From positions 6,963,058 through 7,027,057 of the forward strand of contig SCHM01000003.1 in NCBI GenBank assembly GCA_004123355.1: 64,000 nt of DNA, given 5' to 3'. This document shows, one piece after another, positions 16,206 to 63,896 of this stretch. The stretch is from Amphirosellinia nigrospora. Taxonomy: Eukaryota > Ascomycota > Sordariomycetes > Xylariales > Xylariaceae. Both the position numbers and the translations under genes were made by a program. The notes beneath the pieces were generated by a model, which made no database searches, was not told the DNA's origin, and saw only the letters and a program-made list of their open reading frames with translations. Every line of letters begins with the position of its first letter. Within the stretch, counting starts at the first letter, position 1.

Positions 16206-16281
16206 AAAAAAAAAAAAAAAAAAATGTTTAAAAAACCCGCGATTTTGTTATTAAATAGCCGGAATTTAATTTTAACCGGCT

Positions 16282-16331: not shown

Positions 16332-16334
<3 letters not shown>

Positions 16335-23716: not shown

Positions 23717-23917
23717 TAGTTATAGGTAGTGGCTAGCCAAGTAGCTGGTGCCATAGCCCGCAATTTCTATAGCTGTGGCCCTTGCGGGGCCACACTACAG
23801 TATTTAGCTCGGAACCTGCTACGCAGGTTCCTTACATATACACTCCTTCTTTACTTATAGATTTAGTACAATAAACATATTTTAGAGCCACGCCTTCTAT
23901 TTTATATAAAGTGCAAC
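23717..23917 (+). repeat. Right LTR of gypsy element
   Basis: Direct repeat of 9948-10150, preceded by a purine tract and followed by aagtt. Confidence 0.8.
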
Positions 23918-32291: not shown

Positions 32292-33418
32292 ATGAAGGCC
32301 GAAACTTCTATTTTATTCTTGGCATCATCTGTGGCCGCTACAAGATCTGCCAAACGCGGTCTCATCCACATCCCCAACTCTAACTGGCCGCAAGACAACA
32401 ACATCTGGATTCAGCCCGGGGTCGACCTGACCTGGTACTACAACTATGGACAAGCACCAAGCAGCCAGTATAGCTCGGTTCCTCAGTCCCAGATTGAGTT
32501 CGTCCCGCAGAGATGGACACAGAGCAGCAACCCGCAAGACACAAGCTTCAGTGCCTATGTCAAGCAGCTTATCGCGGGCGGTAGAGCTATCAAGAACGTT
32601 CTCGGCTACAACGAGCCGGAATATCCGTTTTCTTCCGGCGGTGCTCAACTTACCCCTTATACCGCGGCACTCGGTTGGATTGCCGAGTTCGTTCCGCTAC
32701 AGAAACAAGGAATAAGGATTGGTCTACCCGCTGTGAACGGTGATGAGTTTGGCATGCAGTGGCTGGACCAGTTTCTGGCCAACTGTACCCAGATGGTGAA
32801 ACAAAGCAACACCGCATCCAAATGCCCCTATGATTTCCTACCAATCCACTGGTACAATAATTTCGCAGGCCTGCAGGCACTTATCAACCAAGTCAACTCT
32901 AGGTAAGTACACTACCTCTATCTTGCATGTCGAATTTCCAATTGGGCCTGTGGCCCTGTACTATTTACCACCTGGTGTCTCGGCTGACGGTGTTGATATA
33001 GGTATCAACCCCAAAGATCTGGCTTACCGAAATCACGGATCCCAATGTGGATCTAGCAGCATCGCAACAATTCTACAACCAGTCCATCCCATACTTGGAT
33101 GCTCTTAGCAATGTTGAGCGATATTCATGGTTCGCTGCTTTCCGGGTACGTAATATCATAGTTGGCCCTATCCTTTTGGTGTCTTTGGGGGCTTGATGTT
33201 GTCTCGCACGAGTTGGGTTCTCCTCCTTCGAGATCATGGCGGCTAGAAAGCAATTGGGATCTTCACCTTTATATAATTTACTAACTATCATGGTATAGTC
33301 GAACGTCAGCAACGTTGGCCCTAACGGGGTTTTCTTGAACAACGCTGGTAAATTGACTGACATTGGGTCTTGGTACCTCGGTGGAAGTGCAACTGGCGTC
33401 ATCCCAACGTCCGGTTAG
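32292..33418 (+). CDS. GH128-family glycoside hydrolase (Asl1-like, probable beta-1,3-glucanase)
   Basis: Secreted or wall-associated glucan hydrolase. Three exons: 32292-32902, 33002-33145, 33299-33418. An N-terminal hydrophobic leader precedes RGLIHIPNSNWPQDNNIW. The (beta/alpha)8 core shows WYYNYG, the GYNEPE motif (acid/base Glu, residue about 104), YDFLPIHWYNN, then KIWLTEIT (nucleophile Glu) and VERYSWFAAFR. It ends with NVGPNGVFLNNAGKLTDIGSWYLGG, the standard domain end. One base is missing just after the first intron (33003-33011, a C near the CCCC run), otherwise the frames join. Likely role is wall beta-glucan remodelling or degradation. Confidence 0.87.
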
Positions 33419-40146: not shown

Positions 40147-41259
40147 TTAGTTGGCAGGCAATCGGTCGAGGCTCCCACCCTTGGCTAGCCAATCTCTTTC
40201 TATCAGGGTTGCCCGATCTTGCCACAGGAAGCGATACGCCGTCTTGATGGTACCGTCACTAACGCCGGCCACCCCGGCAATCTGCTTCGAGGTCTTGCCC
40301 TCTCCCATGAGATGGGAGATCATGTAGATGCAGGCGGCGGCCACAGACAAGGGTGAGCGACCGGCCAAGTCCTTGACAGCGGAACTCTTCTCACACAGCT
40401 CAGACGAGAGGCGAGCCATGAGATGGTTGTTGGTGAAGCGTAGGCCGCTGCAGTACCGCGCACACAGCTCGGTGGCGTTGGTGGCGCTGAGAGTGGGCGC
40501 TCCGCCATCCTGGTTGATGGGTCGCACGAAGGCCTTGTTCTTGTCGTCCTGCAGGAACTTCTCGAGCATCTTAAAGGTACGGCCAATCTCCTTCTTGGGC
40601 ACCTTGGTGAGGGCGAAGATCTCCCGGAAGGTGCGGGGGGCGTTGGACTGGCGGCAGGCGATGAAGATGCAGCCGGCGATGATGACCTCGGTGGACTTGC
40701 CCTTGAAGTACTTGGCGTCGTCGGTCATCTTGAAGATGTGCTTGGCTGCATCTTGGGTGGTTTGGAGATGGTCATGGCATCGCAGAAGTTGGAGATTTCG
40801 CGGTAGGCGGCGAGGAGGGCCGAGTTGCTCTGCTTGGTATCCTTCTCATTCTTCTTGGCGGCCTTGGTCTGCAGGCGCTGCAACTCGCGGGCGTCCTTGC
40901 CGTCGAAGGCGATATTGGTCTCGAGCTGTGAGCCGTTGAGCAGGGGGTTGACCGAGTCACCGACACGGCTGGGTCGTCGTTGTTCTGGTCGTCGTTGGCG
41001 AAGGTGCGCCACTCGGAACGCGTGTCGATAATACGGTCGCCGAGCACAAGTCCGCACGAGGCGCACACCATGTCGCCTGACGAGAACTCTTCAATCAGGT
41101 TGGGCGGGAACTCGCGGCAATCCTTACAGTGCATGATCTCATTGAGATTCTGCTGCCACGGCTCCTCCTCCTGCGCGATACCGGTGGCCGCGGCGATGCT
41201 GGCGCTCTGCTGGGCTGCGATGAAGGCATCCGAGTGCGACGTGACTGGGCGGCGGCCAT
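40147..41259 (-). CDS. Transcription initiation factor IIB (TFIIB), interrupted by single-base indels
   Basis: TFIIB bridges TBP and RNA polymerase II at promoters and is normally single-copy and essential. The ATG at 41259 is the only one in a sensible place. A short Ala/Gln-rich leader reaches the zinc ribbon CKDC...CASCGLVLGDRIID, then the B-reader/linker SEWRTFANDDQNNDDP and SRVGDSVNPLLNGSQL. Two cyclin repeats follow: KGKSTEVIIAGCIFIACRQ...PRTFREIFALTKVPKKEIG and SSELCEKSSAVKDLAGRSPLSVAAACIYM...ASDGTIKTAYRF-like, ending RLPAN. In the ribbon I see C-x2-C and a second C-x2-C, as expected. Breaks near 41234, 40971 (a GGG run) and 40757 (TTGGGTGGTTTGG) each need one base. Such damage in an essential gene points to assembly error rather than gene loss. 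Confidence 0.9.
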
Positions 41260-42500
41260 GATGGGCGATGCGACCGGGGCGACCGTGGCGATGGTGTTAT
41301 CGATTTGTAGTTGTCGATGAACAATAGCCGGAATGCCGATAACGATAATGGGCACTGGACAGGAAATGACGCGCGAGCGGGATGAGAGTAACGAGAGGAC
41401 GGCGTCGTTGTTCAACGGTCGGAGGTGGGAGTGGGAGTTGGAAAAGAGTGACGGTGAGAAACTGGGCTGAGAGGAATGGTTTAGAAGGCTAAATCAGGCA
41501 CTCAGTGCAAGTGTGCAGTACAGGTGAATGATGACAGATCTGACTAAGCATGCGCGTACTTAGTAATCTAGGTACTTGTACGGTAAGGAGCACTGTGTTT
41601 TGATAGGTGCCTAAGGCTGAGGTTGCGTACTTAATTATGCCTTGCGAGGGTACTAAGAATGGAAGGGGTATGCTGGAAGTACAGTATCGATATACGGGCT
41701 ACTGGGTGGCGAACACTGTAAAAGGTAGTCTGTAAGGTGAAAGCTCAACAATTGAATGGAATAATCTAGTTAAGTAATTGAGCACAGTAACACAGAATGC
41801 GCAAGGCTAGACGAAATATTTATATGTGCAAATGATGATAAAAAACAACAACAACAATCCGCATTATCCAAAATCAATCTATGTTTCTGACAAGGCTTCA
41901 ACCAAAGTCAACACCTGGAGCATAGCCCTTCGCTTTGTCCCTTTCTACAACACCACCAAAGAGAACATATTCTTCTTTATGCCAAACTAGTTCAGTCACT
42001 CAGACCCCAGTATTATCTACCTGAAGAAATAGGTAGCCATTCAATGAAATGAAGTGCAGGCATGAAGGGATTGGTTTTTGCTACTGTAGATCCGAATCAT
42101 ACGAACACCGAGAAAATATCATATACCCATCACCAACTCCACGCTTGCTAAATTTCACACAATGTAGAGAAAAAGGATGTCTTGTGGTCCCCCCAGAAAG
42201 ACCTTTCAAAGACTCATCACTATGTCGTAGAGGTGGGGAGTGCACTCTGAGATGGTACTCCAATCCGCCCCAACCTCCCATCATCCCACTCCAAGATGAC
42301 AGCCCCTTCCAGACCAAACCGCCTCTAAAAGCGACGAGCCCCGGCACCATGACGCTGTGGAAGTCGACGTGCACGCTCAGGCACTGAGAGGTAGGGCGCG
42401 AAAGCCGGATGGCGATCGAGGCCGACACCACCAGGATGCGAGGCGCCCCTCTCGCTCTGGGCGCGCGCCTCCCAGGCCTTCCAGTCTTCCCTCAAGCTCG
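41260..42500. other. Intergenic region
   Basis: Promoter of TFIIB and 3' flank of the membrane-protein gene. Overlapping frames at 42049-42431 on both strands have no family match. No RNA gene seen. Confidence 0.45.
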
Positions 42501-46327: not shown

Positions 46328-48101
46328 CTAACTTGGATACCCAGGCCAACTCACTTCAATATTCAACTGGAAATAAGCATTCACCTTTTGATTGAAGCGA
46401 ATGCAGTCCTCGCAGATTTTGTTGCTGCTCAGTATGACTGCCTGTCTTAATGAGACAGGCGGCTCATTTTCACTCAGCGCCATCAGATCGTAATGAATTT
46501 CCTCTCTCTTCAACAACTTCTGTAGTTTCTTGTCTTCAGCTCTATCACGGCTACGTCATTGTCTAGCTCAAGGTTTGACAGTTCTCTCTTAACCTCGTTG
46601 ATGTCATGCTTCAGCTCTGCGACCTTTTGCTTATCATAAGGCTTATTCGCCGCGTCGAACATCTGTGCAAGAGAGTTCGTGATCCAATTTCACCTTCCTC
46701 GCTTCCAAGTCACGTACCTTTCCCCAGGTTGCAGACTTGCTCTTCTCTGCGTCAAGAGAGTATTTGGCTCCGCGGATTGAGTCTCTTAATTCCAAGTCAA
46801 GTTCTTTATCGCGAGGCGTGAATACATGCCTGTCTATGAAATAGGCGATCAACTTCTTCTCCGCATGGCAAGCAGAATATAGCCCAGGTTTGCCATGATC
46901 CCCATCTGGATAGACTTTGAATTCATGGCCAACAGTGGCTGCGATATAATAGACTTGCTCGATCCAACCTCGCCCAACCTTGTCGTCTGGAGGCAGAGCT
47001 TTGGCATCCCAACCGCTAGTTGCTGGCATACGGATGAATTGATCTCCCCTGAAGAGAACGGCAACGGTTTTATCAAGATTTTGCACGGGCAGTTGAGAAT
47101 CGGGCCATGAAGCGCTATGGTCTTCTCAGATTCCGACTTCCTAAAGGATATTTGATGCGTTCGCTCTCCGATGGTGGTCTTGTATACGCACGTTGCTTTT
47201 CAGCGTCTTGATTGCCGAGTAAGATGACAATATGCCGCCTGTCTCTATTCCGCTCGGGGAGGCTATCTGCAGCCGCAGGACCGGAACGCTGGAATCTTTC
47301 TTCTTCATTTTCTCGCCATGGCTGCGCGAAATCTATCGCACAATGACCCTTGTGGTCTCGAAGATTTTTGTCAGCATCAGCATTGAGCAGTACTTTCACG
47401 CTCTCGACTCGACCCCAAAGCGCAGCTTCCATGAGTGCACTTCTTCCAGCATTGTTGGTAACGTTTATATCTGCACCGTGTTCTAAAAGGAGTAACACCA
47501 TCTCATCGCTTTCTTCTGCCGCTGCTAATATCAGAGTAGTGTTTCCAGCCTCATTTTTCCCACGTAGAAAGAGTTCCGTTTCACTCGAAGTGCTGAGATA
47601 TTGACTTATTGCATCCAATTTACCAAGTATGCAGTTTGAAATAGCAAATAGTATCCTTTTTTGCTGAAAGGTGTCGCCATCTGAAGAAGTGATAGATTCG
47701 ACTTCTCTTGAATCTTCGTCTAGACTTAAACCCGGCCCTAGGTTTTCTTTTGCGTCCGAGATATTCATCTTGTTGTGGAAAAGATCGGCCAGTTCAGCCT
47801 CGTCTTCTTCCAAAAAATCTGAAGTGTGATTCCTTTCGTCTGCTTGCGAGGAAATATTCACAAAGCAAGCTTTTCTCTTGTCAATCTCATAGCCTACAAG
47901 TTCCCTCGTCTCATCAATGGGAAATATGAACTCGTATTGACCACTAGGGACGCAGTGTGAAGCACGTTTTCCTGAAAGCTTAAATCCGTGGCGATGTATC
48001 TTCTCACAGTACGGGCATTCAACGTAGACGGAGCTCGCATCCCAGTGATGCACGTCGATTTTGGGACAGAGTACTATGTCGGGAGGCATGATGCGCTTCA
48101 T
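46328..48101 (-). CDS. Ankyrin-repeat protein with C-terminal DYW-like nucleic-acid deaminase domain
   Basis: The first 328 codons run unbroken from the ATG at 48101. They hold a small Cys pair (VECPYCEKIHRHGF), an acidic stretch, then ankyrin repeats (NTTLILAAAEESDEMVLLLLEHGADIN, SALMEAALWGRVESVKVLLNADADKN). One-base shifts near 47130, 46660 and 46540 connect this to a zinc deaminase-like domain: IEQVYYIAATVGHEFKVY, then CHAEKKLIAYFIDRH (His and catalytic Glu), a charged coiled-coil region, and finally KICEDCIRFNQKVNAYF with C-x2-C. HAE followed by CxxC is the cytidine-deaminase zinc signature. Ankyrin plus this layout resembles the DYW-type deaminases reported in ascomycetes. A target (RNA or DNA) is not known. 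The gene is convergent with the ankyrin/STAND gene, 120 bp away. Confidence 0.75.
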
Positions 48102-48487
48102 AAGAAAGGTAAAAGTTGTGATGAAAAGGCAGGATTAACTTGCTCACCTACCAGTCGCAACTATTGAACACAAGTAGCGGGGTAAGGCCACGTAGGTAGA
48201 CATTATTTTGATGTCACAGCTAAGCCATAGAGTATCTGAGCCCAAGGGTTGGACATCGCTAGTGATAACAGGGATATTGGAGATCAATCCAAAGAGACAA
48301 AGGATTTTGCACAAATAGGGGCTAAATGACAGGTTACATTGCAGTAAGAAATGGAGATTAGATGAATTTTCACTGAACGATGTTGGGAACGAAATACGGC
48401 CTTATCCGACCATGCGCTTAACATGCAACGATGAGGTGTTCATGAGCCCGATGTTGTATAATTGAATGCGAATCTTTCTAGTATAGT
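48102..48487. other. Short intergenic region
   Basis: Promoter of the deaminase gene and 3' flank of the PKS. No further feature recognised. Confidence 0.5.
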
Positions 48488-51400
48488 CTACCGTTTTATA
48501 GTTTCTAACTCATCAACTCTTGACAACCTCTGGCGGTGCAATTTTCCAGCGACAAATTCTCTTAGCGACCTAAGAGACTGATGGAACTAAGGATATCGAG
48601 GAATGACACGTCGACTTTGAATACCGTCCAAAACCACATCCGAAATTCAGAAGCGATCATACTATCAACACCGAAATCTAACAGTGGCTTTCCGACGTCA
48701 ATTTGATCTGGTTTGACAAGCATGAGGTTTGAGAATGTTTGGTCGTAACCCGCAGGACCGCATCCTGTAGCGATGTCGCATTGACCTCGGTAGCCATAGC
48801 GTTAGCCACACTGGCCGGGAGACTACGCAGCCAATGTGTGGCCGGCAGCTGACTAACTTCTGGAGCGCCCGTATTATCTCCATTATGAGGCCGCGAACTA
48901 TCTTGAAAGGCAGATGCAATGAGGATCGCGCGAGGATCCTGCATGGTACCGTGGCTGACATCGAACCCTTTAGCCATCAGCTCGCGGACCTTGAAGGGCT
49001 CCAATCCTGTTAGAATGTGCGATGATTCCGGGTCTCGACCTTGAGACTCATGCGTGAGTGCCATATCAATTACCTGGAGAAATTCGTCTTCGGTCAACGG
49101 TTGGATGCCTCTACGCAAGAGGAGCGCCTCGATCTTGGGGTTCTCGTGCAGGTAGCCGACCTCGGATATCATGCCTAGGCCTACCGAGACTGCTGGTTTT
49201 CCCTGAATACGACGCCAGCGTGCGAAGCATCGAGGAATGCATTAGCAGCGGCGAATAGGTTACTTTCCGTCGCAGTGCCCACACTCCCAGATACCGTGAA
49301 GTGAGCAAGAAAAAGTCCAGCCCCTCTTCGTGGCCATGGGCCTCGAGTGCGCGATGGAGATTCCAAGCGCCTGCTACTTTGGGCTGGATAGCAGTATGCC
49401 AGGCGTCACTTGTCATACGGGTGAACAGGGCCTCATGAAGTCCATGGCCGCATGTACCACACCGCCGATCTGCCTTGGTCTACAGGCAACTATTCTTTGC
49501 GTTCACTCATCGTCTTTCAAAACATTGCCTCGTATAACGGTGGCGTTGCGCCAGCGTCGGTCAGCCAGGATATCAGTTGCCGGGCAGTAGCGTTATCAGA
49601 TCCGGACCGCCCGAGGAAGACAAAATGCCGAGCGCCTCGTGCCAGCATCCAGCGACAAAGGCTACGACCCAGTCCTAGACATCCTACGAGCAGATAGACC
49701 TTGCTGGGGTCGAATACTGCTGAGTATTTCGATGGAGAGACCTGTGTATCTTTTGTCAGTATCCGAAACTGGTAGGCAGGATAAAGTGAGTCTCACAGGT
49801 ATACGACTGGATTGGTCTTCAAAAGAGATGACCACCTTGCCGATTCTATCTTTTGAAGAAAAAAATCGGTACGCTTGGCTAGTCTCCGATACATCGAAGG
49901 TGGTTATTGGGCTTGGCTTGATCTCACCTGTGCGATACATTTCAAGTACCTCTTTCAAAAGCCTGTATTTGAAAGTTAGTAAATCCCTTCTTGAATGGCA
50001 CTTTGATGAATAATAACATGAGCCGGCACTTACTTCGACAACATGTCACGATACGATTGGTGTTCATGATAGAACAGTTCACTCAAGTCAAACGCTATAA
50101 ACGTGGCATTCCGCGAGAAAATGCTCATGTCCAGCTTGCCTGCGTCGACCAGTTCACGCTTACCTACTTCAACGAAGCGCCCGAAACTCGCAACACAGCT
50201 CCAGCTCGCGTGCATGAGGTCTCCCACAGGGAGTTGAGAACCACGTCCACCCCGCGCCCTTCGGTAGCTGCCATGATGCCCGAAACAAAGGAGTCATCAC
50301 GAGAGTTGAAAATCCTTATTTGTGGTATACCAAACTCGCGCGATATATAATCCCGCTTTACGGATGATGAAGCAGTGGTGTAGACAACGGCTCCGAGCCA
50401 TTTGGCGATGGTAATCGCTGCGATCCCGAGCGCACCAGACCCGCAGTGTATCAATACAGACTCGCCTGCCTGGAGACATGCACGATACCGTAGAGCATAC
50501 AGGGCCGTAGCGTAGGCCACAGGAAGGGTTGCCATGGTCCTGTAGTCTTCGCTCGGAAGTATCTTATGCGCAGCCCATGATGGGACGCGCTCCGTCGTGG
50601 TCATATGGTTTGGCGCCAACACTAGGACTCGATCTCCGACCTCTAAATGGCTTCCGTCTCCGACTGCAGTTACGACACCGCTGAACTCTAAGCCGGTAGT
50701 TCCCTTACGAGTGTCTGTGCGCCTCAGAACATAAATATCTTTGGCGTTCAGACTGACGGCTTTCACGTCAACGTCCACGAACCCCGCCGGAATAGGGGCT
50801 AGGGGCTCCCGCAATTGCTGGAAATGTATTGAACTAGTGACACCCAGTTTACCAATGGCCAATTGGGCCGGCCGGGCATCAGCCAGAGTTTCGTATTGTA
50901 TCGCTTCCTGCCCTCCTAAACGGCGGCGAAACAACTGATTCAACTCTGCACAAGGGGAAGCGGCTAATGTAGACCAGGCCATCCTTTTCGATAAATTCCT
51001 TGTCATCTGTGTTAGGCCGGCTAATTAGCGCATTCAGTATATTTTATATGTCAACATCAACCTGCGGCTTGACCTGTCGGCAAAGCTTATCGTCATCACC
51101 GCAAACCTAAGCGATGGTCTTTCAAGCATCAAAGCACGCGACAGACCATTAACCAACGACACATTAGGGCTTGGATCGTTTGCTGTACCTGTCCCAGTGA
51201 GCCATAAGAGGTTCGTGACTGTGTCTGTCATTCGCCGCACAACATCCATTTCCGTTTGATCCATGTGGGCGAGAAAGTCGTGTTCAATCTCAATCATGGA
51301 GATGCATATTGTATTTTCAGAGGGGATCGCCTTGTTCAGATCAAGTAGAGAGATGCTAGAGACTTCACTGATAAATGTGTTCTGTCTGAAAAGGATTGCG

Positions 51401-54400
51401 AGAGCCGAAACGAGCTCCAATACAGCTTCTGAAGGGTTAAGATACTGTTGAAATGTCAGCACCATGGTCTTTTATCTTCAAATCAAATAAATATTTACCA
51501 CAAATACCAAAGAGTACCCTTCAAGGTTTGGTGACATTTGCTGGGTGTGGCAAGAAGAACATTTTGATCAAGCTGGACCGTCGTGAACCCAGCTGCTTCG
51601 AAGCACGCACTCGATGTGTCGTGTTGCCTTATAGCAACTATGCCGCATTCGCTAAGATGAGACATGATTGAACTAGTAAATCTCGCTACATCGTTTTTAG
51701 ATATCGCATCCTATATCAAATTGAATTAGTTCTCAATTCGGAGGCTTCGGTGTACCAAGCGCACATACTTCAGGAGCGACAATGACGTCAAATGGTTTTA
51801 TGTCTTGTTCTAGGAAACAAATCTTTCCTTCGCTATCGAATCGAGCCATCTGCCACGAGCTATAACACGGAAAGTCTGGTTCTTCATTTGAGCGGTCTAC
51901 CCACTGTTTCAAAGCACTGCTAGTCCCGATCTCGAGAATGCGAAGCTGAGAAGTCTTGTGCGCAGCAAGATCGATAAGAGTGTCAATGATAGGGGATGAT
52001 CCGTCATCTGTTGAATCGTTCCTAGCCATTTCGGTATTGTTTCTGATATACTGGTTGATCTGTGAACTCACGCCGGAGTGCAGTCGGCGTATATCTGGTT
52101 TCCACTGAATCTGTAGACAGGGATGGCGTTTTTGGTGAGAAACTTGAGGCGTGGTTTCTGCACCGAGTTTTTCAGTGTACAGAGAAAGTTTCACGCCTTT
52201 AAATTGTGCGATTCGCGTTTCATTTTTGTCGTACAGTGTTGAGTCCGCATTCAGAGTGGAAATCCCAGATCGGACCGAGCGCGCGTAAACGGTGGCGTCG
52301 CCAACGAGAGTCGCATCCAGAAAGCGAGACTGGCAGGACGGGATAAATATAGGCAACCAAGCTCTCTGTTTACTCAACGTTCCTGCCGAATCACTACAAT
52401 TGCAGCTTGTAGACAGGCATCAAGGGCAATTACCTGCATGGCGCAGGGGTAGAATTGCCATCTAGCTTCACCGCACACAAGGCATTGCTTTGCTGACGTT
52501 TTCCGTCAGTACGCAAAGTGGCCAAGGACTGGAATCGTGACCCGAAGGAAAGGCCTTCTTCTTTTAATTTGGTGTACCATCCCTCCATGGAATGGAGTTC
52601 GAGATTATTAGTGTTGTGCTGTGAATCATTTATCCGTACAGTATCTGATTGCAGGCGCATGCTGCCAACGCAGTGAACTGTCGCAAGACCAGCTTTCCAA
52701 GATGAGATTGAGAAGTCATACCAGTCGTTTGACCTCGATGCTGTTGACAACTTCTTCAGCGCTACTGTCGTGTGCAATTCCAAATTTTCCGATTCCAAGC
52801 CAGTTTGATATGGTATGACAAGAGCTGAGCGGACGTTCACATTGCTAAACTCGAACAGCGCGCTACGCCGCGACTGCTCCGTCTTGAGGCAGCGGATTTG
52901 CGAAACAGCTTCCATTGCCATGGTCAGATATCCTGCAGCTGGAAAAACAACTTGTGTTTCAATTTTATGATCAGCCAGCCAAGGCACTTCGTCAATAGAC
53001 AGTACGTTGCGCCAACTCCTATCTATGTCGTTACCAGCAATCTGCTGGGACCCAAGCAGTTCGTGTCGCCGATATTCCCGAGCTCTTAATTCGCGGCTAG
53101 GCCGAGGTTCGCGCCAGAGTAAGCCGGACGAATAATCCCACGGGTAAGGTGCCAGGTCGGACAGGTGATCAAGTCCACTCTCGGCAGACCGTTGACTATG
53201 CTCCAATTCAGGTTATGCCATGTACGAAGAGAGCACCTGCAAGCTGCTTCAAGCTCAGGTTTGAATTACAGTTTCTTTCTAAAGTAGCAGAGTATGGTGC
53301 AATCTCCTTGCCGAGGCTTTGCTGACTTTGTTGAATGAGGCTTTTCAGTGCTGTATGTGGCCCTAACTCAATCCAATGATATCTTCCGCTAGCCAGCAGC
53401 TTTTCAGTAGCAGAACTGAACTGCACTGGAAGCTCAAGATTGCCCGCCAGTAGTTTGGTGTGTCCATAGCAGGATTCATTTGGGTGCTGTCTTGGCTGGG
53501 GTAAACGGATGAGAAAATCTTGACAGCTTTTGACTCCTCTGGATCCCAAGATGGAAATAAGGGGCCAAAAGCTCTTGGTATAGTGATCCTACTTCTTCAT
53601 CATGTATGAATGATATGCTTGCCCCCTGTGCGAAGCATTCTAGCGAACAACCTCTGGCTTTGAATGTTTTCTAGTAGAATGCCGATGCCTTCAACAGAAC
53701 CACTCAAGGTCACACTCTGCGGTGAGTTTATGCAAGCAACACAGACCTGCTGGCCTAACCCTAGTTCCTCAATGAGTTGGTTTGCAGACTTAGCATTCAT
53801 GCCTGCTGCCAGCATGGCACCTCTTGTTTGGACTTGGGAAACAACATGCCCACGAAAATACGCCACGAGTAAAGCTTGAGTAGCAGTGAGCAATCCAGCA
53901 GTGTAAGCAGCTCCAATTTCACCAGAGGAGTGGCTATTGTGGCAGAAGGCTCTACTCCCCAAGAACGTAGAACAGCCACCAAGGCAATTTGGATGGCGTA
54001 CATAATGGCTGACTACGAGCGGCTTCGTCCACTTTGCTCTTATCTGGGGCGTCGAGAATCGAATTCTTCCAGGGACCAAGAAGGTGCCAATTCCGATGGT
54101 AATGTTCGCAGGATACCGTCTAGCTGCCTTATACTTGAACGGAAAATAGAGTTATGTTGGATCAGTTCCTTCCCCATTCCTGCATATTGTGCTCCCTGGC
54201 CGGTAAAAGCAAACACAAACGGAAGAGGGCTTTGTGTGTTAGAGGTCATAGGATCCGCTATCTCTGTCTGCGTTACGCTCGTCATCCCCGTTTCTGCAGC
54301 ATCACTAACGATCAAGAAGTGGCGGAATCGTAGATGAGAGCGGCGCATAGTGAGCGTGAAAGCTAAACGGCAAAGCCTTCCATGGTCACAACGTCTAATC

Positions 54401-56304
54401 TCTTCTTCTATTTGGACTTTCCTCCTTTTCAGTGACGTTGAAGATGCCGCAGAAACGGGGATGACGAGCGTTTCTTGACAATTCAGCTTAGGTTGGCTGT
54501 TTGTTCGATGAAGTAACCAATTCGAATAACTCTCGGGGATTCAAGAATGAGATGAGCATTAGCTCCTCCGTAACTATTCATTACCATCTTAGTAAACCAC
54601 TGTGTCGTAATGATGAAACATGAAACGACAGGATAGAGGAAGGGAAGTAACTCAGTACCCGAACGAATTGATCCCAGCCCTTTTGATGGATCTTGGCCAG
54701 TCTTGGTGTTCAGTCACCACCCTCATGCCATTAGACTTTAGATTGACTGACCACACATGTCAGAGTCGCTTTAGGGTATTAGATGGACAATTCTTACGCT
54801 TAGGATTCACATTAGTTGGACCCCGAGTAGGTGGGAGCGCCCCATTTTGAAATGCTAGGGCAACCTTGATAATCGATGTTAACCCGCTGGCTGCCTCACT
54901 GTGACCAAGATTCGTTTTCACCTATGAGCGATATTAAATCAGTTTTCAACTTGCTCCTCAGAGTAGAAATAGTTCAACAGCTCAGACCTATCTTTATGCA
55001 TAGGCTAACGAATTTTTTGGAGACTGAGAATTTTACTTACTGCACCGATCATAAGAGGTGTTGATCTCTTTGTTGTTGAGAAACATCGAGCCAAACCCCT
55101 AACTTCAATGGGGTCTCCCACAGCTGTTCCTGTGCCATGACATTCAACATAATCCGTGTCCGAAAACTGGATATTGGCCTCAGCATACGCTTTTCGGATG
55201 ACGGCTTCTTGGAGGGTAGAGCTTGGCTGCGTTATGCCGGGTGTTCGTCCGTTCCTGGCTCAGTCCCAGTCAGTGCCTCTTCAGTCGCAGAACGGAAGGA
55301 GATGGATTACGAGTTCACGGCACTTGAGCGGACGACGGCCCAGACTTTGTCACCCGCTTTTACGGCAGAGGAGAGACGCTTGAGATAAACGGCATTTACC
55401 CTTCAGCACGTCCGTACCCATCAGCTGACTCGTCAAAGGTATTGCATGTGGAGTTTGGCGAGAGGATCCCCGCCATCGCACAGTACCAAGATGTTGCTCA
55501 GGGGAAGTGATCAAGTTAGCGCCAGCCACAATCGCCCCGTCACAATCTCCCGCTTGGAGTGCTCTGACAGCGGAATGAAAGCAGTACATGGTTGAAGAGC
55601 ACGCGGTGTCCATCGTAACACTAGGTCACATGTCAGTGATTAACGCTCGATGCGACGGCTAACGCGTTGAGATACCTTGGGCCATGGAGGTTAAACACAT
55701 GACTAATCCGATTTGATAGAATCGCTGTTCCAAGACCAGTAGCGCTATACCTATGAAGATAATCCGGATCTCTCATCTGCATAGTCTGGTAGTCGACTGT
55801 AAAATTCCCAACATAGACACCTGTATTGGAGCCGCTGATGTCATGGATAGATACACCAGCATTTTCGAAACATTCGAAGACGACTTCGAGCAGCTTACGT
55901 TGTTGGGGATCCATATACGTAGCCTCCAAGTTGTTGATTCCAAACACATTGTTGTCGAACATACGCACATCTTCATCCAAGAAATATCCTCCGTCGGCAT
56001 TCAACGTGCCTCCCAAGTTTCTGCCAGGGCATGGAAACCCCCAATATTAAAGCGCTCCGGTGGAAGACGCCCTTGAGCAGACTTCTTTTCCACCAAGAAA
56101 TCCCAGAGCGCCGAGGGAGAATGGATATCTCCCGGCAGACGGCACCCTGGCAGTCGGACATTAGCTATTGCACAAGTCTGGAGTTACATTGAAGGCTTAT
56201 GAGAGTGAAATACCGATTCCGACAATGCATACTGGGTCGACATGGCCATCGCCTGGTTCTACGTCATCTCGCCCAAGTGCATCGTCGTGTAGAGATGAAG
56301 GCAT
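48488..56304 (-). CDS. Highly reducing type I polyketide synthase (KS-AT-DH-vestigial MT-ER-KR-ACP)
   Basis: Iterative fungal PKS building a reduced polyketide from acyl-CoA units. The start is the ATG at 56304; a 67-bp intron follows residue 30. KS shows DTACSS (Cys, about 55605), VECHGTGT (His) and NLGHSEA (second His). AT shows FTGQGAQYAGMG and, after restoring one G near 53933, GHSSGEIG. DH has WLADHKI (His, about 52970) and LDACLQA (Asp, about 52420). The MT position has LEIGTSSAL instead of a GxGxG SAM site, so it looks dead. ER shows HCGSGALGIAAI (NADPH site). KR has VGCLGLGRSL but FAAAN where YAAAN is expected. ACP has DFGVDSM with the phosphopantetheine Ser. At least five introns sit in the KS. 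Naive stop lies at 48562; restoring one base extends the ACP end to 48488. Several one-base indels break the frame. Confidence 0.9.
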
Positions 56305-57202
56305 CGACTTGACGTGCTATTACGACTGGAGTCAATCTGGGCGCACCCTTGAGAGCCGAATTCCTCACTCTCCCTAATATTTCTTTTCCTTGTTCTTAGT
56401 TTGCCCTTCGCAACGGAGAAACTAATACGAAGCAGACGTCAGGAGATATAAATTACCACGAGTATCGAAATCTTCAGTTGAGCATCCACCTTGCTGAGTC
56501 ATCTATCATTGAGATTTTATATTATTCTTTATAATTTTACCCTCCTTTATATATACAGCAACGCGGAACGTAGAGTCACCAGTCACGGAGGTCCTAAATC
56601 CTACACAACGACCTCCGTCTACTACAGTCCGCGACTCCTCTCAGGCTTCACATATATCGTGACAGATATCCGTAAGTTCATTTTGTACACGTACTTTGGT
56701 TATAAAGATGCCAATGCTTACTATTCAAATATTGACATCAAAAACTTGTAGACAACTAACAATTATCGATGCACTAAAAGAATATAAGCCCGCCAGAAAT
56801 CACCTAATTAGGCGGACTTTGGTCTAAGTATGCCACAATGAGATACCGACTCAACGGCCCCGCCCATGCTGGTGTGCCGAGAAATCCTGACAAATACCAC
56901 CTATACCAGAAATGCAGGTAAGATGTCACTGGAATGATGCATATGCACACCCCTGGCTCTCGCCAAGGCTTCAATGCATGGTACTTGGCTACCTAGTCGC
57001 CTTGTAGGGATACGGCTCCACCGTGCTTATCCACCACCTGTCATGCATGTAAGACGCCGGTGTACTTTCCGAGCATGTACCCGCGACAGATTTCTTTGGC
57101 AAAGCACTACGTAGAGTTAGTCGCCAATATGAAAACTTCTAAGATTCCTTTCTCTAAGCACCATTACTTTACCTTAGTGACGAACCCCACTAACCCCTTA
57201 TC
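56305..57202. promoter_or_regulatory. Divergent promoter of the PKS and SDR genes
   Basis: About 900 bp separate the PKS start (minus) and the SDR start (plus). A shared promoter would co-regulate the pair, as is common in fungal clusters. The most regular structure is the inverted repeat at 56585-56618. No gene is supported inside. Confidence 0.6.
56585..56618. promoter_or_regulatory. Inverted repeat ACGGAGGTC-N16-GACCTCCGT, candidate activator site
   Basis: Perfect 9-bp arms with CGG/CCG cores. Zn2Cys6 regulators of fungal clusters bind paired CGG triplets, and this palindrome lies in the PKS/SDR shared promoter. Spacing of 16 between arms is wide for the class, and the arms could instead form a hairpin. 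Binding is inferred. Confidence 0.45.
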
Positions 57203-58602
57203 ATGCCGTCAAGACAGAAACATGCGCTCGTCACCGGGTAAGTCTTCAGCCTACCGTGCTACTTCCTTGCTGATTCATGATCAATATCATGTAGCTGTGG
57301 TCAGGGAGGTATCGGCGAAGCTCTCGTGCGAGAATATACTCGCCAAGGCCTTCACGTCATCGCCACCGTTCTGCCTTCCGAACCCAGCACCCATCTGTCA
57401 GGACAAGGTGTTTCATGCTTCACGTTAGATGTCACGCAAGAGCAGTCAATCGCCGATTTACATAAGCATGTCAACGAGCTCACAAATGGGTATCTTGACG
57501 TGCTGGTAAATAATGCGTGAGTAACACATTCGGCCGCAAGGGCGTGAATTTATCGTAGCTTACCTTGTGTTTGCCATATAATAGAGGAATATGTTAGTTT
57601 AAACATCGTGAAGGCTCTAGTGACGCAATAGCTCAGTGTGCAAATAGGCTACACTATGACGGCGATAGACACAGACGTCGCCGAGGTTCAGAAAATGTTT
57701 GATGTCAACCTTTTTGGGCCTATGAGAATGGTGCATCACTTCCATGGGGAACTGATTGCTGCCAAGGGGCTATCGTCAACATCGGTTCCGTTGGGGGCAT
57801 CGTGCCCTTCCTATACGGATGTAAGTTATGATTTCGCATACGTTCTAATATCTGTTAATTGATGCTGGAGATAGCTGCGTATAATTCCGCCAAGGCGGCA
57901 TTGCACCATTGGTCCAACACTTTGCGAGTGGAAATGAAACCATTTAGGTACGTTTTCTTAATTACAGTCGAAAAGACTAACTCTTAACTAACATACCTTT
58001 CAATAGCGTCCGGGTTGTCACCGTGAGTTATGCTGGTTTCAAGCGTACTTACGTACCTAGGTATATATACTCTCAGCTGATCAAAATTTCGTCCAAGATT
58101 ATCTCAGGAGAGATAGGCACAAACATTCTAGCGCGGGATCAAATAGCCAATCGCAAACTACCAGAAGGTATTATAGAAGCTATATTTTGATGATCCTACA
58201 CTAACTAGCTAGACTCTTTCTATTCTCCTCTTGCTGTTGAGTTTAATCAGCATATCCATCGAGTACCCAGTACGTAATGTGAAAATTCTCACATCTTTAG
58301 ATCGAAGAACTGCATTCATGATGTTCTAGAGACAACAAATCGCTTCCAATACGCCGAGAAAGTTGTCGCCGAGAGTTTGAAATCATCTCCCTCGGCGTGG
58401 TTTTGGTACGGAAGCACTACTAGTATTGTTCGCTTCTTTGACATCTTCGGGTTTCGAACTGTCTGGGTATGTAGCACACTTGATACACAATTTTAATAAG
58501 AAGTCTGGTCGCTGATAGCTATAGGACTATATCTTTTGGAACTGGTTCAACTTAAACAAGCTAAAGGATGCACATCTTCAGCGCACTATTGTAAATTCTT
58601 GA
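57203..58602 (+). CDS. Short-chain dehydrogenase/reductase, acyl-DHAP-reductase-like (10 exons)
   Basis: NADPH-dependent classical SDR resembling 1-acyldihydroxyacetone-phosphate reductases; beside a PKS it is a candidate tailoring reductase. Exons: 57203-57237, 57295-57516, 57585-57592 (8 nt), 57648-57820, 57875-57947, 58007-58022, 58098-58167, 58213-58269, 58330-58466, 58525-58602. With one G restored in the run at 57766-57769 all phases close and give 289 residues. Motifs: TGCGQGGIG (cofactor), LDVLVNNAG, NIGSVGG (Ser), YNSAKAALHHW (Tyr-x3-Lys), then a hydrophobic C-terminal part (AWFWYGS...FWNWFNLNKLKDAHLQR) typical of the membrane-associated subgroup. It is divergent from the PKS across a shared promoter. 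Confidence 0.9.
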
Positions 58603-58766
58603 GCGAATGCGCCGAGTCAGACATAGCTTGTCGGCATAGCAAAGTGACGATTATAGGGTTGGGACTTCGTTGCTCGGCATTAACCGTTGTGATTGAATTG
58701 CTGGTGGGCCTGGGATGAATACTAGTGTTTGCTCCTGTTCTCACTGAGATTGCCAGCTGGTGTCTA

Positions 58767-59441
58767 TCAAGCATCCTTTTCGACATCATCCCTCCGCCCA
58801 ACATAGTCCTTCTCTAGCGCACCCAGATACCCTTCCAGCTTCTGGCCATTCACTACAACGTCATTGCAGTCCAACAGGATGTATATCATACGGCCAGGAA
58901 GCGCACCACCACCTGTGATATTGCGCCATTTGTGGGCACAGGCACGATTGACACTCACGTCGCCTTCGCGCATAATGCGACGTTCACCAGAGTCGAGCTC
59001 AAGCTCAAATACGCCTTCGAGGACGATGCCATAGTCTATGGACAGCGCTCGGTGCAGTGGTGACTCCACTCCTGGTGCAAAGTCCACCATTCTCACAACG
59101 CTCCGTTGTGGTAGTGTAGGGGCGGCTGCTCATCTTCAGTCAGCTATTTCAAGATATTCCAAAGATAGGGGTCTGTCTTGATAAAATTCCGTACCTCACG
59201 TTCCTTGGCCTTTTGAACATCCACATTTTCGTTAAGTTCTGTTGGCGACTCTTGTGTGGAATATAGAATATTAGAGACGGCCCGACCATCGAACATGATG
59301 CGTGTGTGGTCTCCCACATCGTCGACAAGAAACGCCCTTCCCTTCAGCATTATGGCCCGTGATGTGACGCTGTATCTGGCGTAGGCCTGGCGCCGGAAAT
59401 CCCTCCTTCACGTATCCGGCATTGGGAATTTCTGATTCCAT
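58767..59441 (-). CDS. Cupin-domain protein, candidate cluster enzyme
   Basis: Small single-cupin protein of the kind often found in fungal polyketide clusters; the reaction is unknown. The ATG at 59441 opens MESEIPNAGYVKEGFPAPGL, then RQIQRHITGHNAEGK. A one-base insertion-type shift near 59343 leads to AFLVDDVGDHTRIMFDGRAVSNILY. An intron lies between 59194 and 59129; its junction is off by one base, so a further indel is likely. The cupin follows: motif 1 SPLHRALSIDYGIVLEG (His, Glu) and motif 2 EGDVSVNRACAHKWRN (His, Asn), ending EKDYVGRRDDVEKDA. The gene is tail-to-tail with the SDR, 164 bp apart. Confidence 0.8.
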
Positions 59442-60152
59442 GGCTTCAAGTTTCGTGAATAGAATAGCTCCGTAGACTTTGAGGGAAATCGTGTCGCCAA
59501 TCGATCATGAATTTCCAAGACTTGTAGATAACTAAAGGTCTACGATACATGAGCTAGAAGTACCCATTTGTAGACCTGTGGGGATAAGATAAAACCGACG
59601 CATGGAACTTCCGTCACTTCTACACTAGTGTAGGACTCCCTGTTGTATATGTGGGGTTAAGGTTGATCCATGAGCATGGTGTCTACTACCCCTGTGTGAT
59701 AGCCCCTCGTTCACGTTGCTCCGAAACAACCGTATTCCGCCAGTTCCTAGGGCTTTCATCCTCTGTCCCTGCAGGTAAGATCTCTATCTGACTCGTTGGA
59801 AATGGATGCAACGTCGGGTTCTTATAAAAATGGGACATGCCAATTCTGGACGCGCAACGAAGCTCCCACCCACATCCCAACCCAAAACGGAAAGCAACCA
59901 AGATAGTTATTCTTTCCGCCTTGTTGTCCCGTCATGAGAGAGTTCTTGGAACAAAATCCAAGCGGGAGCCACTATGAGATAAGGGCAGTGATGACCGCGT
60001 CAGGATGAGTACCAATAGCTCATGGGTTGCCTGCTGTGGTATTATGACTTTAGGTAAGAGAATATGTAGACTGGGAAAATTTTAAGTTTGTATCACGACA
60101 TGCCCTCAAAAATACTCTCTAAATAGATCATAGCCACAGTTACATAGGGGAC
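59442..60152. other. Intergenic region
   Basis: Upstream region of the cupin and 3' flank of the second SDR. No gene or repeat recognised; a minus-strand frame at 59686-59901 has no family match. Confidence 0.45.
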
Positions 60153-61206
60153 CTAGACATGAGCCGTCAACGTCGTCCCGCCATCAATGATGAAGCCGCA
60201 TCCCGTAACATAGCTTGAACGAGGACTACTTAAGAACAAGACTGCATCGGCCACCTCTTCTGCCCTAGCTAGGCGCTTCATTGGCACTGCGCTCTTGATG
60301 AAGTCTTCTAGTCCGTCCATCCCTTCAGCGCCCGCTGCACCATTGGCGTATCTACCCAAGTAGGACAGACACAATTCACTCTGATGTCATGTTTTACGTT
60401 ATCGAGAGCTAAATTACATGTGATTAATACCCGTTTGCAAATAATCTGCATCAAAAAGCGGGATGATCAAACAGATACAAGGGGGCTACCGGCATTCTTG
60501 GCTAACCCGAGCACCGCATGCTTTGATGCTGTGTATTGGACGATGTCCGGCGAGGCGATATACGATGCAGCCGATCCCAGCAAGACTATGGTTCCGCGAG
60601 TCGCCCCTCGCAGGGATGATGTTGGATCGTTGGTTCGCGGCTCTTGCGATCGCATGATTGCCGAAGCAACACTTGTTATTATTAGAGTGCCCGTGACATT
60701 AACATTCACACTGAATTCCTGAAATCAACGTCGGCTACTTGTCGGGCATTCTGCACGCCGATCTGTTCCAAATCTACATTAGCAGGGTTCATAAATAGTT
60801 CGATTAAATGTGACGGGACAGGACAGGAATTCGGCAGCTATCCTACCCCAGCCGAGTTTACGCAGTAGTCAATCCGCCCAAACAAGCTGCTTGTAAGTTC
60901 CATGCAGCGCCTTACAGAATCCTCCATCGTAACATCGATCTCCGATGCTTCGGCTCGAAAGTTTGGATTGGTAGCAGCAGTTTTGCTTTCACTTGCAACT
61001 AGCAGCGCGGCTTCTTTGTCCATATCGGCAACCATAATGCCCGCTGCACCATCTTTGGCGAAGGCAATGCAGCACGCTCTGCCAATGCCGTTCCCTGGAT
61101 GATTAGTGATGTGGAACGCCAAAGGCTAAAGAAAGAAAAACACAGTCACAGCGAAGGACGGCTTCTTACCGCCACCCGCAACGAAAGCATAACCAGTTAA
61201 GTCCAT
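60153..61206 (-). CDS. Classical short-chain dehydrogenase (FabG-like), candidate tailoring enzyme
   Basis: NAD(P)-dependent oxidoreductase. Exon 1 (61206-61170, 12 codons) MDLTGYAFVAGG splices over a 75-bp intron to GNGIGRACCIAFAKDGA at 61094, completing the GGGNGIG cofactor motif. Next come VADMDKEAA, RIDYCVNSAG (NAG motif), another intron, VNVTGTLIITSVASAIM, LLGSAASYIA (Ser), YTASKHAVLGLAKNA (catalytic Tyr-x3-Lys), an intron, then LDNVKHDIRVNCVCPTWVDTPM, RLARAEEVADAVLFLSS and GCGFIIDGGTTLTAHV. About 280 residues. One-base losses are inferred near 60715 and in the run at 60320. The full catalytic set is present. Confidence 0.87.
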
Positions 61207-61729
61207 AATAGCAAGTCAAAATACGGTCACAACCATTGGCGCAGAAATAGCTGAACTGCGTGAAATGGGTGGGATTTTATGCACAAGGGTAAGATGAGAA
61301 TACATTATTTGCAGTGATAAGCAGTTGCGTCGACACGCCATCTTGCTGTGGAGCTGGAAAATAGAGTTGAGAGGCAGACTGCATGTGAATACGACGAAGT
61401 GTGTCGTACAGCGCATCTAGTTTCTAGTAAGCATATACGGAGGGGATTGGGGTGGCGTCCTCTTGGCGCAAAGCATTGGATTCGAGACCGAGCTTTACAC
61501 TACCTAGCCGTCAGGGTGCATGAAGGGAACCATGCCAACTCCAGTGGCTGGTAAAAGATCATCACAGCATCTTCTTAAGCAGGGTATGTAACTCCCCCCA
61601 TCACGAGTGTCACTCCGTGACTTGCTGATTTCGCCTTTGGTACTTCGAGGCATTGGTTGAAGAGGCGAAAATGAGAGTGTTGCGGCTCATCTGCCAAGTT
61701 CTATTCTCTGGATCAGTATGTCTAGTCCG

Positions 61730-61744
61730 CCCGACGTCTCATCG
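61730..61744 (+). repeat. 15-bp direct repeat, copy 1
   Basis: CCCGACGTCTCATCG, identical to 61880-61894; the core GACGTC is palindromic and CRE-like (bZIP). Confidence 0.6.
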
Positions 61745-61879
61745 GCACAACACCTAAACCTGCAAGCAGAAACTTGGCAAGCCCTTAATTGGGACTGCTG
61801 AAAAACCGTGACCTAAAATCCGAGAATATTCACCGTACTCATAGGTACGACGGACCTGAGAAGTCACATACGTCTACCA

Positions 61880-61894
61880 CCCGACGTCTCATCG
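61880..61894 (+). repeat. 15-bp direct repeat, copy 2
   Basis: Identical to 61730-61744, same orientation. Confidence 0.6.
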
Positions 61895-62328
61895 TCGAAT
61901 TAATGCGCCACGGAGCATGGTTCGAATCCTAGCGATGTGATTTTGTTGATATAAAGTGATAATAGAGTTGATAAATGACTCGGCATATAGTATCATTCCC
62001 GAGCCCTACCCGTAGATGCCGACACCTAAAGACTTAAGTAGCTATATGGCGCCGCCCTTGTATAGCCACTGTTTTTTTGATAGACTAGCTGGAATCTTGA
62101 ATGGGTAGGCGGGCGAGACTGGATACATATTACTACCACACAGTGGCAATTAGGATTTTATTACGCTTATAGCAGGTGCACTGCATTTGGATAGGACTCA
62201 TGATTTGGTTACTAACTTGATGCCACGCCGAGAATATAACCAACATGTAAGCCTATGATGATTAGTTAGCACGTTTATTTTGCCGAATCGTGAAAAGTTG
62301 CCTGATTCAACTGCGATCGCGAACCAGT

Positions 62329-63896
62329 ATGAATTTCCTCAGGCGCTTGATGGCGCCATCGTCACCACGTCCAGGCGATGTCGTGATAAAGGCCTCTACG
62401 TGGGATGATATGGAAATTGCTCGCGACCAGATTTTTGTTATCACACACCGTCTTGAAGATACTCTTGATCCCGAAATCCTTCATAATACACTCGTCAAAT
62501 TAGTCAATCGCGACGGGTGGCGAAAACTTGGTTCGCGTCTACGCCTGAATGTATGTCTTTTTGATATAACCTTGGCATCATAAAAGTTGGCGCACGTAAA
62601 GGGGATTTACACTGACATTGTGGCATCTTAGAAAGCAGGCAGAATCGAGCTACACATCCCCCAAGAATTTACTTCTGAGCGTCCCGGCGTAGGATACGCG
62701 CATCGTCATTACAATGACGCCATCGCAGACCACCCAATGGGGTCAAAAATGATGTCGAATCCAGACCCAGACCAACCACAATTCCACTCACCAATGGCCG
62801 AATTGCTGCCTCTGGCACTTCGTCCTGGAAGCCCGCGAACTTTCAAAGAATTCATGACTACCGACGAGCCAGCGCTAAATTTGTATATTGTCACGTTCGC
62901 CGACGCGACCCTGGTTTCGCTGTCATGGCCACATTGCATTTGGGACATGACCCACAAGGAGATGATGACAGCCTGGCGGTGTGTTATGCAGGGTCGTGAG
63001 GAGGATATCAAACCAGTCGCAAGCTTCGCGCAAGACGCGCTCGCGGATACTGCAGAATTAGCAAAGAGCGTAGAAGAGGGCTATCTACTGAAGCCATACT
63101 TGTGCAAAGGGTGGAGTTTCGGTCTTTACATGATACGCGTCCTCTGGGAAGGGCTCTTCGGGTGGAATAAACCAACACCGATCGTTCTTAGCATTCCAGC
63201 GTCGTATATGGCCGTCCTCCGCAAAGAGGCACTCTCGACGCGAGATCCAGACCGAAAGTCACAAGTTTCCTTTTTGAGCGACGGCGATATCCTCACAGCG
63301 TGGTCGACGCGGTTATGCGCTGGCGCCTTGTATAGTCGGCCTCGACGCACCGTCACACTTTTGAGTGTTTTCGACCCCGCGGGCGGTTACCCGCCATCTT
63401 CGGTACCGCGGAAGTACAGCTGCAGAACTGTGTCATGGCGCTACATGCACAGTTTTCTGCCGCAGGGGTTCGGAAAGCAAATAATCGACTCGGTGCGCTC
63501 GCGGAGGAGGTGCGGCACGCTATCGTGCAGCAGACCGAGCCCAGCCAGGTCGCCTTACAGGGCCGCGAGCTATTCGAGGCTATAACAAATACTGGAAACA
63601 TGCCATTTTACGGCGATCAGAGTAGCTACTCCATCATTATGTCTAGCTGGGCGAGCGCGGGGCTCTTTGAAGCCGATTTTAGTGCCGCTGTGGTAGGCGA
63701 TGATGATGGCGCGCGTGAAAAATCGCGACGAGGGAAGCCAGTCAGGGTCCACGGCACTTCGCTCGGTCTGCCGCCCGTAGTGACGTGCTGGCACATCCTA
63801 GGCAAGGATGCAGCGGGCACGTACTGGATGATTGGACAGCCCAGGGGTGTGGACAGGGATATGATAAGAGCCGAATTCACGGCACTGCCGAGCTAA
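62329..63896 (+). CDS. HxxxD acyltransferase (fungal transferase/BAHD-like family)
   Basis: CoA-dependent O- or N-acyltransferase, plausible for acylating the cluster product. The ATG at 62329 is chosen; the codon further upstream at 62290 is GTG. Exon 1 (62329-62550) starts MNFLRRLMAPSSPRPGDV and ends LRLN; an 81-bp intron leads to exon 2 at 62632 (KAGRIELHIPQEF). The catalytic motif is SWPHCIWDMTHKE (His-x3-Asp, about 62928-62945). Further segments: SFLSDGDILTAWSTRLCAGAL, the C-terminal NNRLGALAEEVRHAI, SSWASAGLFEADF and DRDMIRAEFTALPS. One base is missing in the CCCC run at 63376; correcting it joins the two long frames. The family's second motif (DFGWG) is not conserved, as in many fungal members. 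About 495 residues. Confidence 0.85.

What the first reader, a model, noticed from the sequence alone, without database searches (positions are those of the whole stretch)
48488..63896. Compact polyketide cluster: HR-PKS, two SDRs, cupin, HxxxD acyltransferase
Five biosynthetic genes lie in 15.4 kb with shared divergent promoters. The combination (reduced chain, two reductases, cupin, acyl transfer) suggests a modified, esterified reduced polyketide. I do not recognise the set as a known named pathway, and no P450, regulator or transporter is visible, so it may extend to the right.
Basis: partly seen in the sequence, partly recalled or inferred. Interest (0 to 1): 0.7.

Follow-up and report, generated by a model that had tools for sequence, protein, structure and literature searches.

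The report
Fungal salicylaldehyde-type polyketide gene cluster
A fungal chromosome carries a polyketide gene cluster whose four central genes match the published set that makes alkyl salicylaldehydes, with a probable acyltransferase and a cytochrome P450 beside it, so it looks like an ordinary new member of a widespread pathway family rather than an unknown one.

Summary
Window 48.5-63.9 kb of a 48.1-Mb fungal genome carries an HR-PKS (KS-AT-DH-ER-KR-ACP), two SDRs, a cupin and an HxxxD-like gene, as two divergent pairs around a cupin/SDR tandem. The expected product is an aromatic salicylaldehyde or salicyl alcohol, perhaps acylated, not simply an esterified reduced chain. The genome holds two more loci pairing such a PKS with this cupin. 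The PKS frames are badly interrupted, but so are HSP70, RPB2-family and TFIIB genes, so this assembly cannot show whether the PKS is intact. A related cluster with cupin and O-acyltransferase is in print. New member of a known kind; low interest.

The parts
48565..56183 (-). HR-PKS gene, order KS-AT-DH-HRPKS NAD-binding-ER-KR-ACP, no methyltransferase hit in the 16 pieces scanned; frames interrupted in this assembly
   Evidence: Pfam on separate open pieces; paralogue matches
55008..56183 (-). ketosynthase part; DTACSS and HGTGT motifs readable
   Evidence: PF00109 E 1.9e-25 and 4.5e-14, PF02801 2.6e-19; frames printed
53603..54540 (-). malonyl acyltransferase part
   Evidence: PF00698 E 3.6e-14 and 3.8e-08
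51736..53212 (-). dehydratase part and following linker
   Evidence: PF21089 E 3.9e-15; PF14765 2.5e-4 and 0.0098, both below its cut-off
51037..51471 (-). HR-PKS NAD-binding domain
   Evidence: PF23114 E 3.3e-11
49665..51024 (-). enoylreductase part
   Evidence: PF00107 1.8e-9, PF08240 2.5e-8; PF13602 1.5e-5, just below its cut-off; CurK in PDB 2.4e-26
49114..49792 (-). ketoreductase part
   Evidence: PF08659 E 2.4e-10 and 9.4e-12
48565..48801 (-). C-terminal acyl carrier protein, DSM serine readable; about 430 bases to the next ORF, too little for a release domain
   Evidence: PF00550 1.6e-4; frames; ORFs; that gap itself was not scanned
56285..57200 (.). shared divergent promoter region PKS/SDR1
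   Evidence: gene orientations
57200..58000 (+). SDR1; VNNA and YNSAK readable in the three-frame print (AYR1-like: recalled, not tested)
   Evidence: PF00106 E 9.2e-10 for the first piece, none for the second
58770..59504 (-). cupin; nearest solved structure 8x0u
   Evidence: PF07883 1.7e-6; phmmer 174 bits over 104 ungapped residues, upstream piece 1.4e-11
60156..61125 (-). SDR2, tandem with the cupin, arrangement also kept at locus c2
   Evidence: PF00106 1.7e-10 and 5.2e-7, PF13561 1.4e-12
61126..62265 (.). shared divergent promoter region SDR2/fifth gene
   Evidence: gene orientations
62266..63893 (+). probable HxxxD (BAHD-like) acyltransferase, three pieces
   Evidence: HCIWD in the middle piece, DFSAAV in the last; one homologue in the genome, 30% identity; no transferase family or PDB match

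Best explanation
This is a biosynthetic gene cluster of the fungal alkyl salicylaldehyde (ASD) type. Inferred working, from published clusters with the same four genes: the HR-PKS builds a partly reduced chain; the two SDRs and the cupin act with it to set oxidation levels and allow aromatisation to an alkyl salicylaldehyde or salicyl alcohol; with no release domain on the PKS, the chain leaves reductively through the ketoreductase (recalled; seen here only as a paper title in the reference list). The P450 right of the window would then oxidise ring or side chain, and one or both HxxxD-type gene products would acylate a hydroxyl group. Shown here: the domains, the gene set, the gene order and the paralogous loci. 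Inferred: every chemical step.
For: Gene set: HR-PKS, SDR, cupin and SDR side by side. Passages of PMC11915489 state that two SDRs and one cupin protein are usually necessary with the HR-PKS for ASD formation, and count at least 493 homologous clusters in 401 strains. A passage of PMC11669671: fogA+fogBD+fogC co-expressed in A. nidulans led to a product on the way to flavoglaucin. PMC11161606 passages: the px PKS has the order KS-AT-DH-ER-KR-ACP. Within the genome the PKS's two best relatives by ER score (271 and 183 bits, 58% and 46% identity, next 140 bits) are at the same two loci as the cupin's two best relatives (pieces of 62-71%). 3 of 5 cupin loci lie 2.7-6.3 kb from a KS piece, the two weaker (50%) 64 kb and 2.8 Mb away. 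At c2 the cupin-SDR2 tandem is kept, with BBE oxidase, FAD_binding_3 and further SDR genes near by.
Against: No sequence of a characterised ASD enzyme (FogA-D, StrA-D, RusA-D) was available for comparison or a tree, so the assignment rests on gene set, domain order and similarity of the cupin to a PDB entry (8x0u) whose source and title I could not read. Among the flank pieces that I scanned, no FAD oxidase, prenyltransferase or transporter was recognised, and a motif scan found no Zn2Cys6 regulator; the flanks were not scanned in full. At c1 the window's SDR pieces find no match in the 40 kb fetched. The PKS frames are interrupted.
Confidence: 0.87

Rival explanations
1. The cluster is a decayed relic: the HR-PKS and some neighbours are pseudogenes and make nothing.
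For: 10 tight frame changes in 6.3 aligned kb of the PKS, and 10 more across larger gaps that may or may not be introns, against 2 such larger-gap changes in the control. Several changes fall in the KS alone. The two paralogous loci are interrupted too.
Against: Genes expected to be essential are interrupted likewise in the same assembly: 15 tight frame changes in 13.8 kb of seven HSP70 and three RPB2-family genes, 13 of 15 in the same direction, and TFIIB inside this window. The PKS tight rate (1.6 per kb) is above the pooled control (1.1) and below the RPB2-family group (7 in about 3.4 kb). The direction split (7 to 3) does not differ from the control (Fisher P 0.36), weak evidence at these numbers. 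Active-site motifs stay readable.
Confidence: 0.15
2. A generic HR-PKS cluster for a reduced aliphatic chain that is esterified by the fifth gene's product.
For: HR-PKS with all three reducing domains and a probable transferase gene are present.
Against: The cupin plus two SDRs is a published set for aromatic ASD scaffolds, and this cupin type sits by this PKS type at three loci of the genome.
Confidence: 0.08
3. The core ends at SDR2; the HxxxD genes and the P450 belong to another or no pathway.
For: The HxxxD-gene pieces have no match at c1 or c2 (E 1e-4) and no firm family match; the second is unrelated to the middle piece of the first by BLASTP.
Against: SDR2 and the fifth gene share a divergent promoter region, and the P450, read by eye, starts about 0.6 kb after the fifth gene. 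A P450 is part of the rus, px and fog clusters, and an O-acyl transferase of the amm cluster.
Confidence: 0.3

Closest known systems
rus cluster (roquesalins), Penicillium roqueforti, with its relatives anu (annullatins) and str
   Same: HR-PKS, two SDRs and cupin as core; a P450 in rus (passages of PMC11915489)
   Different: rus has two flavin monooxygenases and a transcription factor and no acyltransferase among its eight genes. Sequence identity not testable here.
fog cluster (flavoglaucin), Aspergillus ruber
   Same: HR-PKS fogA, SDRs fogB and fogD, cupin fogC, P450 fogE (passage of PMC11669671)
   Different: fog has prenyltransferase FogH and oxidoreductase FogF; here HxxxD-type genes instead
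px cluster (xylasporin/cytosporin), Xylaria
   Same: KS-AT-DH-ER-KR-ACP PKS with SDRs, cupins and P450 (passages of PMC11161606)
   Different: px has prenyltransferase, FAD oxidoreductases, regulators and MFS; the word acyltransferase does not occur in the paper's main text
amm cluster, Trichoderma virens / Stachybotrys chartarum
   Same: HR-PKS whose domain organisation its authors liken to a T. virens salicylaldehyde PKS, RmlC-like cupin, Rossmann dehydrogenase, P450s and an O-acyl transferase (passages of PMC9430172)
   Different: has prenyltransferase, hydrolase, FAD/FMN dehydrogenase and MFS; one Rossmann dehydrogenase rather than two SDRs; assigned by its authors to acremeremophilanes. 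That it is related to the ASD type is my reading.
PDB 8x0u / 8x0v cupin
   Same: 174 bits over 104 ungapped residues
   Different: source organism and function not readable with the tools; no held paper from 2023 on contains the code

Membership tests
Fungal alkyl salicylaldehyde (ASD) biosynthetic cluster | HR-PKS with KS, AT, DH, ER, KR, ACP | tested here: met
   on separate open pieces
Fungal alkyl salicylaldehyde (ASD) biosynthetic cluster | no C-terminal reductase or thioesterase release domain on the PKS (recalled as typical) | tested here: met
   by room only: ACP piece ends at 48565, the next ORF (ankyrin) reaches up to 48134; the gap was not scanned
Fungal alkyl salicylaldehyde (ASD) biosynthetic cluster | two SDR genes beside the PKS | tested here: met
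Fungal alkyl salicylaldehyde (ASD) biosynthetic cluster | one cupin-domain protein beside the PKS | tested here: met
Fungal alkyl salicylaldehyde (ASD) biosynthetic cluster | sequence identity of the four proteins to characterised members | not testable with these tools
   no annotated fungal genome or MIBiG collection on hand
Fungal alkyl salicylaldehyde (ASD) biosynthetic cluster | product is an alkyl salicylaldehyde or salicyl alcohol | not testable with these tools
   needs metabolite analysis
BAHD-like HxxxD acyltransferase (62266-63893) | HxxxD catalytic motif | tested here: inconclusive
   HCIWD present, but any HxxxD occurs in 0.34 of shuffles and the genomic homologue L054 keeps only the H, by eye
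BAHD-like HxxxD acyltransferase (62266-63893) | DFGWG-type second motif | tested here: inconclusive
   DFSAAV here, DFGPAI in the homologue at L054
BAHD-like HxxxD acyltransferase (62266-63893) | profile match to the Transferase family (PF02458) | tested here: not met
   no match at E 10 for the three window pieces; E 0.25, below cut-off, for one piece of the homologue
Epoxyquinoid AtyE-type cupin (considered) | ManC-type (COG0662) cupin acting as epoxidase | not tested
   described in PMC12356543 passages; AtyE sequence not available here

The most novel reading that the evidence does not exclude
The cluster makes an O-acylated alkyl salicylaldehyde or salicyl alcohol, with two unrelated HxxxD-type transferases flanking a P450, a decoration not among the published products I met, in a genome that keeps three separate loci of the HR-PKS/cupin type with different tailoring genes.
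Probability: 0.25. Interest if true: 0.4.

Novelty: new member of a known kind. Interest (0 to 1): 0.22.

Why it matters
It turns an 'unrecognised' cluster into a concrete, testable prediction (an aromatic alkyl salicylaldehyde, perhaps acylated) and warns that frame breaks in this assembly must not be read as pseudogenes. Three loci of this type in one genome also offer a small natural series for seeing which tailoring genes travel with the PKS/cupin pair.

Tried and rejected
Pseudogene reading: held first, after one search showed many frame changes in the KS. Dropped as unproven once HSP70, RPB2-family and TFIIB genes proved interrupted too. The directional bias was strong in the control (13 of 15, binomial P 0.007) but not significant alone in the PKS (7 of 10, P 0.34), so it is not used as proof. 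An earlier, cruder count (28 frame changes with gap up to 40) mixed in overlapping chance frames and is not used.

Pathway regulator: a Zn2Cys6 motif scan over window 26-64 kb plus 40 kb to the right found none (a motif broken by a frame change or an intron would be missed). CGG-Nn-CCG sites in four intergenic regions: 3, 0, 1, 0 against shuffle means of 1.3, 1.0, 2.5, 0.7, no clear excess.

DNA search for a duplicate of 48400-58500 in the genome: three short 68-79% matches, at c2, c1 and one other KS locus, so no recent duplication seen.

Identity of 8x0u: no held paper from 2023 on contains the code; structure prediction, which could have led to the entry title, never started.

Fifth gene: Pfam gave nothing but a stray VF530 hit, PDB and NCBIfam nothing for the middle piece, the only one sent there. 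The second HxxxDG gene gave no meaningful PDB match (best E 0.59).

Full report
What is there. The window is bases 6963058-7027057 of contig C5 of a 48.1-Mb, 11-contig genome whose KS family search returned 120 pieces, a lower bound. Between 48565 and 56183 on the - strand, separate open pieces match, from the 5' end: ketosynthase, acyltransferase, dehydratase, the HR-PKS NAD-binding domain PF23114, enoylreductase, ketoreductase and ACP. None of the 16 pieces scanned matched a methyltransferase; 3 of them matched nothing. About 430 bases separate the ACP piece from the next ORF, too little for a release domain (the gap itself was not scanned). SDR1 (+) is divergent from the PKS; the cupin and SDR2 (both -) are in tandem; the fifth gene (+) is divergent from SDR2.

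Extension to the right. The next 40 kb were fetched. A P450 is certain at L009:2062-2487 (PF00067 E 4e-13). Read by eye from the ORF pieces, the gene starts near L009:490, about 0.5 kb beyond the window; two short upstream pieces gave no Pfam match on their own. A second transferase-like gene with HWRTDG lies at L009:4723-6562 on the - strand (PapA_C E 0.00089, below the Pfam cut-off, for its larger piece); it is unrelated by BLASTP to the middle piece of the fifth gene. Further right are a GST, a Fung_rhodopsin receptor gene and a CoA-transferase III gene. No Zn2Cys6 motif was found.

Which pathway. The set HR-PKS + two SDRs + cupin is known. Passages of PMC11915489 say that two SDRs and one cupin protein are usually necessary with the HR-PKS for alkyl salicylaldehyde derivatives, and that at least 493 homologous clusters occur in 401 fungal strains. 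A passage of PMC11669671 says that fogA, fogBD and fogC together in Aspergillus nidulans led to a compound later converted towards flavoglaucin. Passages of PMC11161606 give a KS-AT-DH-ER-KR-ACP architecture with SDRs and cupins for the px cluster. Of the primary papers, Liu 2019 and Yang 2023 are not held, Nies 2020 was not looked up; all three were seen only as citations or through others' summaries. The cupin here aligns without gaps over 104 residues to PDB 8x0u at 174 bits.

Three loci in one genome. The ER piece has 39 matching pieces in the genome; after itself the best are at C1:11.51 Mb (271 bits, 58%) and C1:9.48 Mb (183 bits, 46%), the next scoring 140 bits. The cupin has five loci (7 pieces); its two best relatives, with pieces of 62-71%, are at the same two places. 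The three strong cupins lie 3.1, 6.3 and 2.7 kb from a KS piece; the two weak ones (50%) 2.8 Mb and 64 kb. Locus c2 (C1:9.467-9.486 Mb) keeps the cupin-SDR2 tandem on one strand and has BBE oxidase, FAD_binding_3 and other SDR genes. Locus c1 (C1:11.498-11.513 Mb) has a P450 and a gene similar to the receptor gene right of the window cluster; the window's SDR pieces found no match there. Cupin and this HR-PKS type thus travel together here, as expected of the ASD core.

Intact or not. The PKS frame is interrupted many times: 10 frame changes with gaps too short for an intron in 6.3 aligned kb, plus 10 changes across larger gaps that may be introns. I first took this for decay. The control speaks against reading it so: in seven HSP70 and three RPB2-family genes of the same assembly (three further weak single-piece HSP70 hits were left out), 15 tight changes occur in 13.8 kb, 13 of 15 in one direction, plus 2 across larger gaps. 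TFIIB, inside this very window at 40.1-41.3 kb, is likewise split between frames; between the two matched parts lie about 181 bases for about 60 residues of the yeast protein, so an intron does not explain it (arithmetic). Genes of this kind are not expected to be so broken, so the assembly most likely carries frequent small indel errors. The PKS tight rate (1.6 per kb) is above the pooled control (1.1) and below the RPB2-family group (7 in about 3.4 kb), and it has more larger-gap changes. Nothing firm can be said for or against decay of the PKS. I did not read the PKS through or mend it.

Mechanism, as far as it can be inferred. From the published clusters: chain assembly by the HR-PKS, oxidation-level adjustment by the SDRs, aromatisation with the cupin's help, reductive release by the PKS's own KR (recalled; title only), then hydroxylation by the P450 and acylation by a transferase. 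None of these steps was tested. The transferase assignment of the fifth gene is the weakest: no family match, a HxxxD that chance gives in a third of shuffles and of which the homologue L054 keeps only the H by eye, and a DFS/DFG motif shared with that homologue.

Novelty. A related cluster with cupin and O-acyl transferase, amm, is already described (PMC9430172 passages). Searches for salicylaldehyde or HR-PKS clusters with acyltransferase and for HR-PKS, cupin, acyltransferase and P450 listed 6 papers and 1 paper; of these I read passages of PMC11669671 only. I met no acylated ASD product in the passages that I read of any paper, which is not a claim that none is in print. This is a new member of a known kind, with a modest open point in its tailoring genes.

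Noticed in passing
window 46646-48134 (-): Ankyrin repeats (PF12796 E 8.6e-14) next to an SsdA-like single-strand DNA deaminase C-terminal domain (PF24120 E 6.2e-17), in two abutting frames: a fungal locus with a bacterial-toxin-type deaminase domain.
   Followed up: no
window 10800-25500: AT-rich block of 15% GC (9% in places) with RIP-type dinucleotide ratios, TA/AT 1.32 and (CA+TG)/(AC+GT) 0.30, against 0.76-0.89 and 1.09-1.23 in three other stretches of the window.
   Followed up: partly
window 40147-41296 (-): TFIIB gene split between frames: evidence of small indel errors in the assembly.
   Followed up: yes
L032-L033 (C1:9467200-9485800): A second locus of this type with BBE oxidase, FAD_binding_3, several SDRs, cupin and HR-PKS.
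   Followed up: partly
L028-L029 (C1:11498600-11513300): A third locus with P450, cupin, HR-PKS and a gene similar to the Fung_rhodopsin receptor gene that lies right of the window cluster in L010.
   Followed up: partly
L054 (C6:6585899): The fifth gene's only genomic homologue found (30%) lies about 22 kb from another KS piece at C6:6608645.
   Followed up: no
window 29424-30050 (-) and 32211-32906 (+): A DUF1996 gene and a glycosyl hydrolase catalytic-core gene left of the cluster.
   Followed up: no
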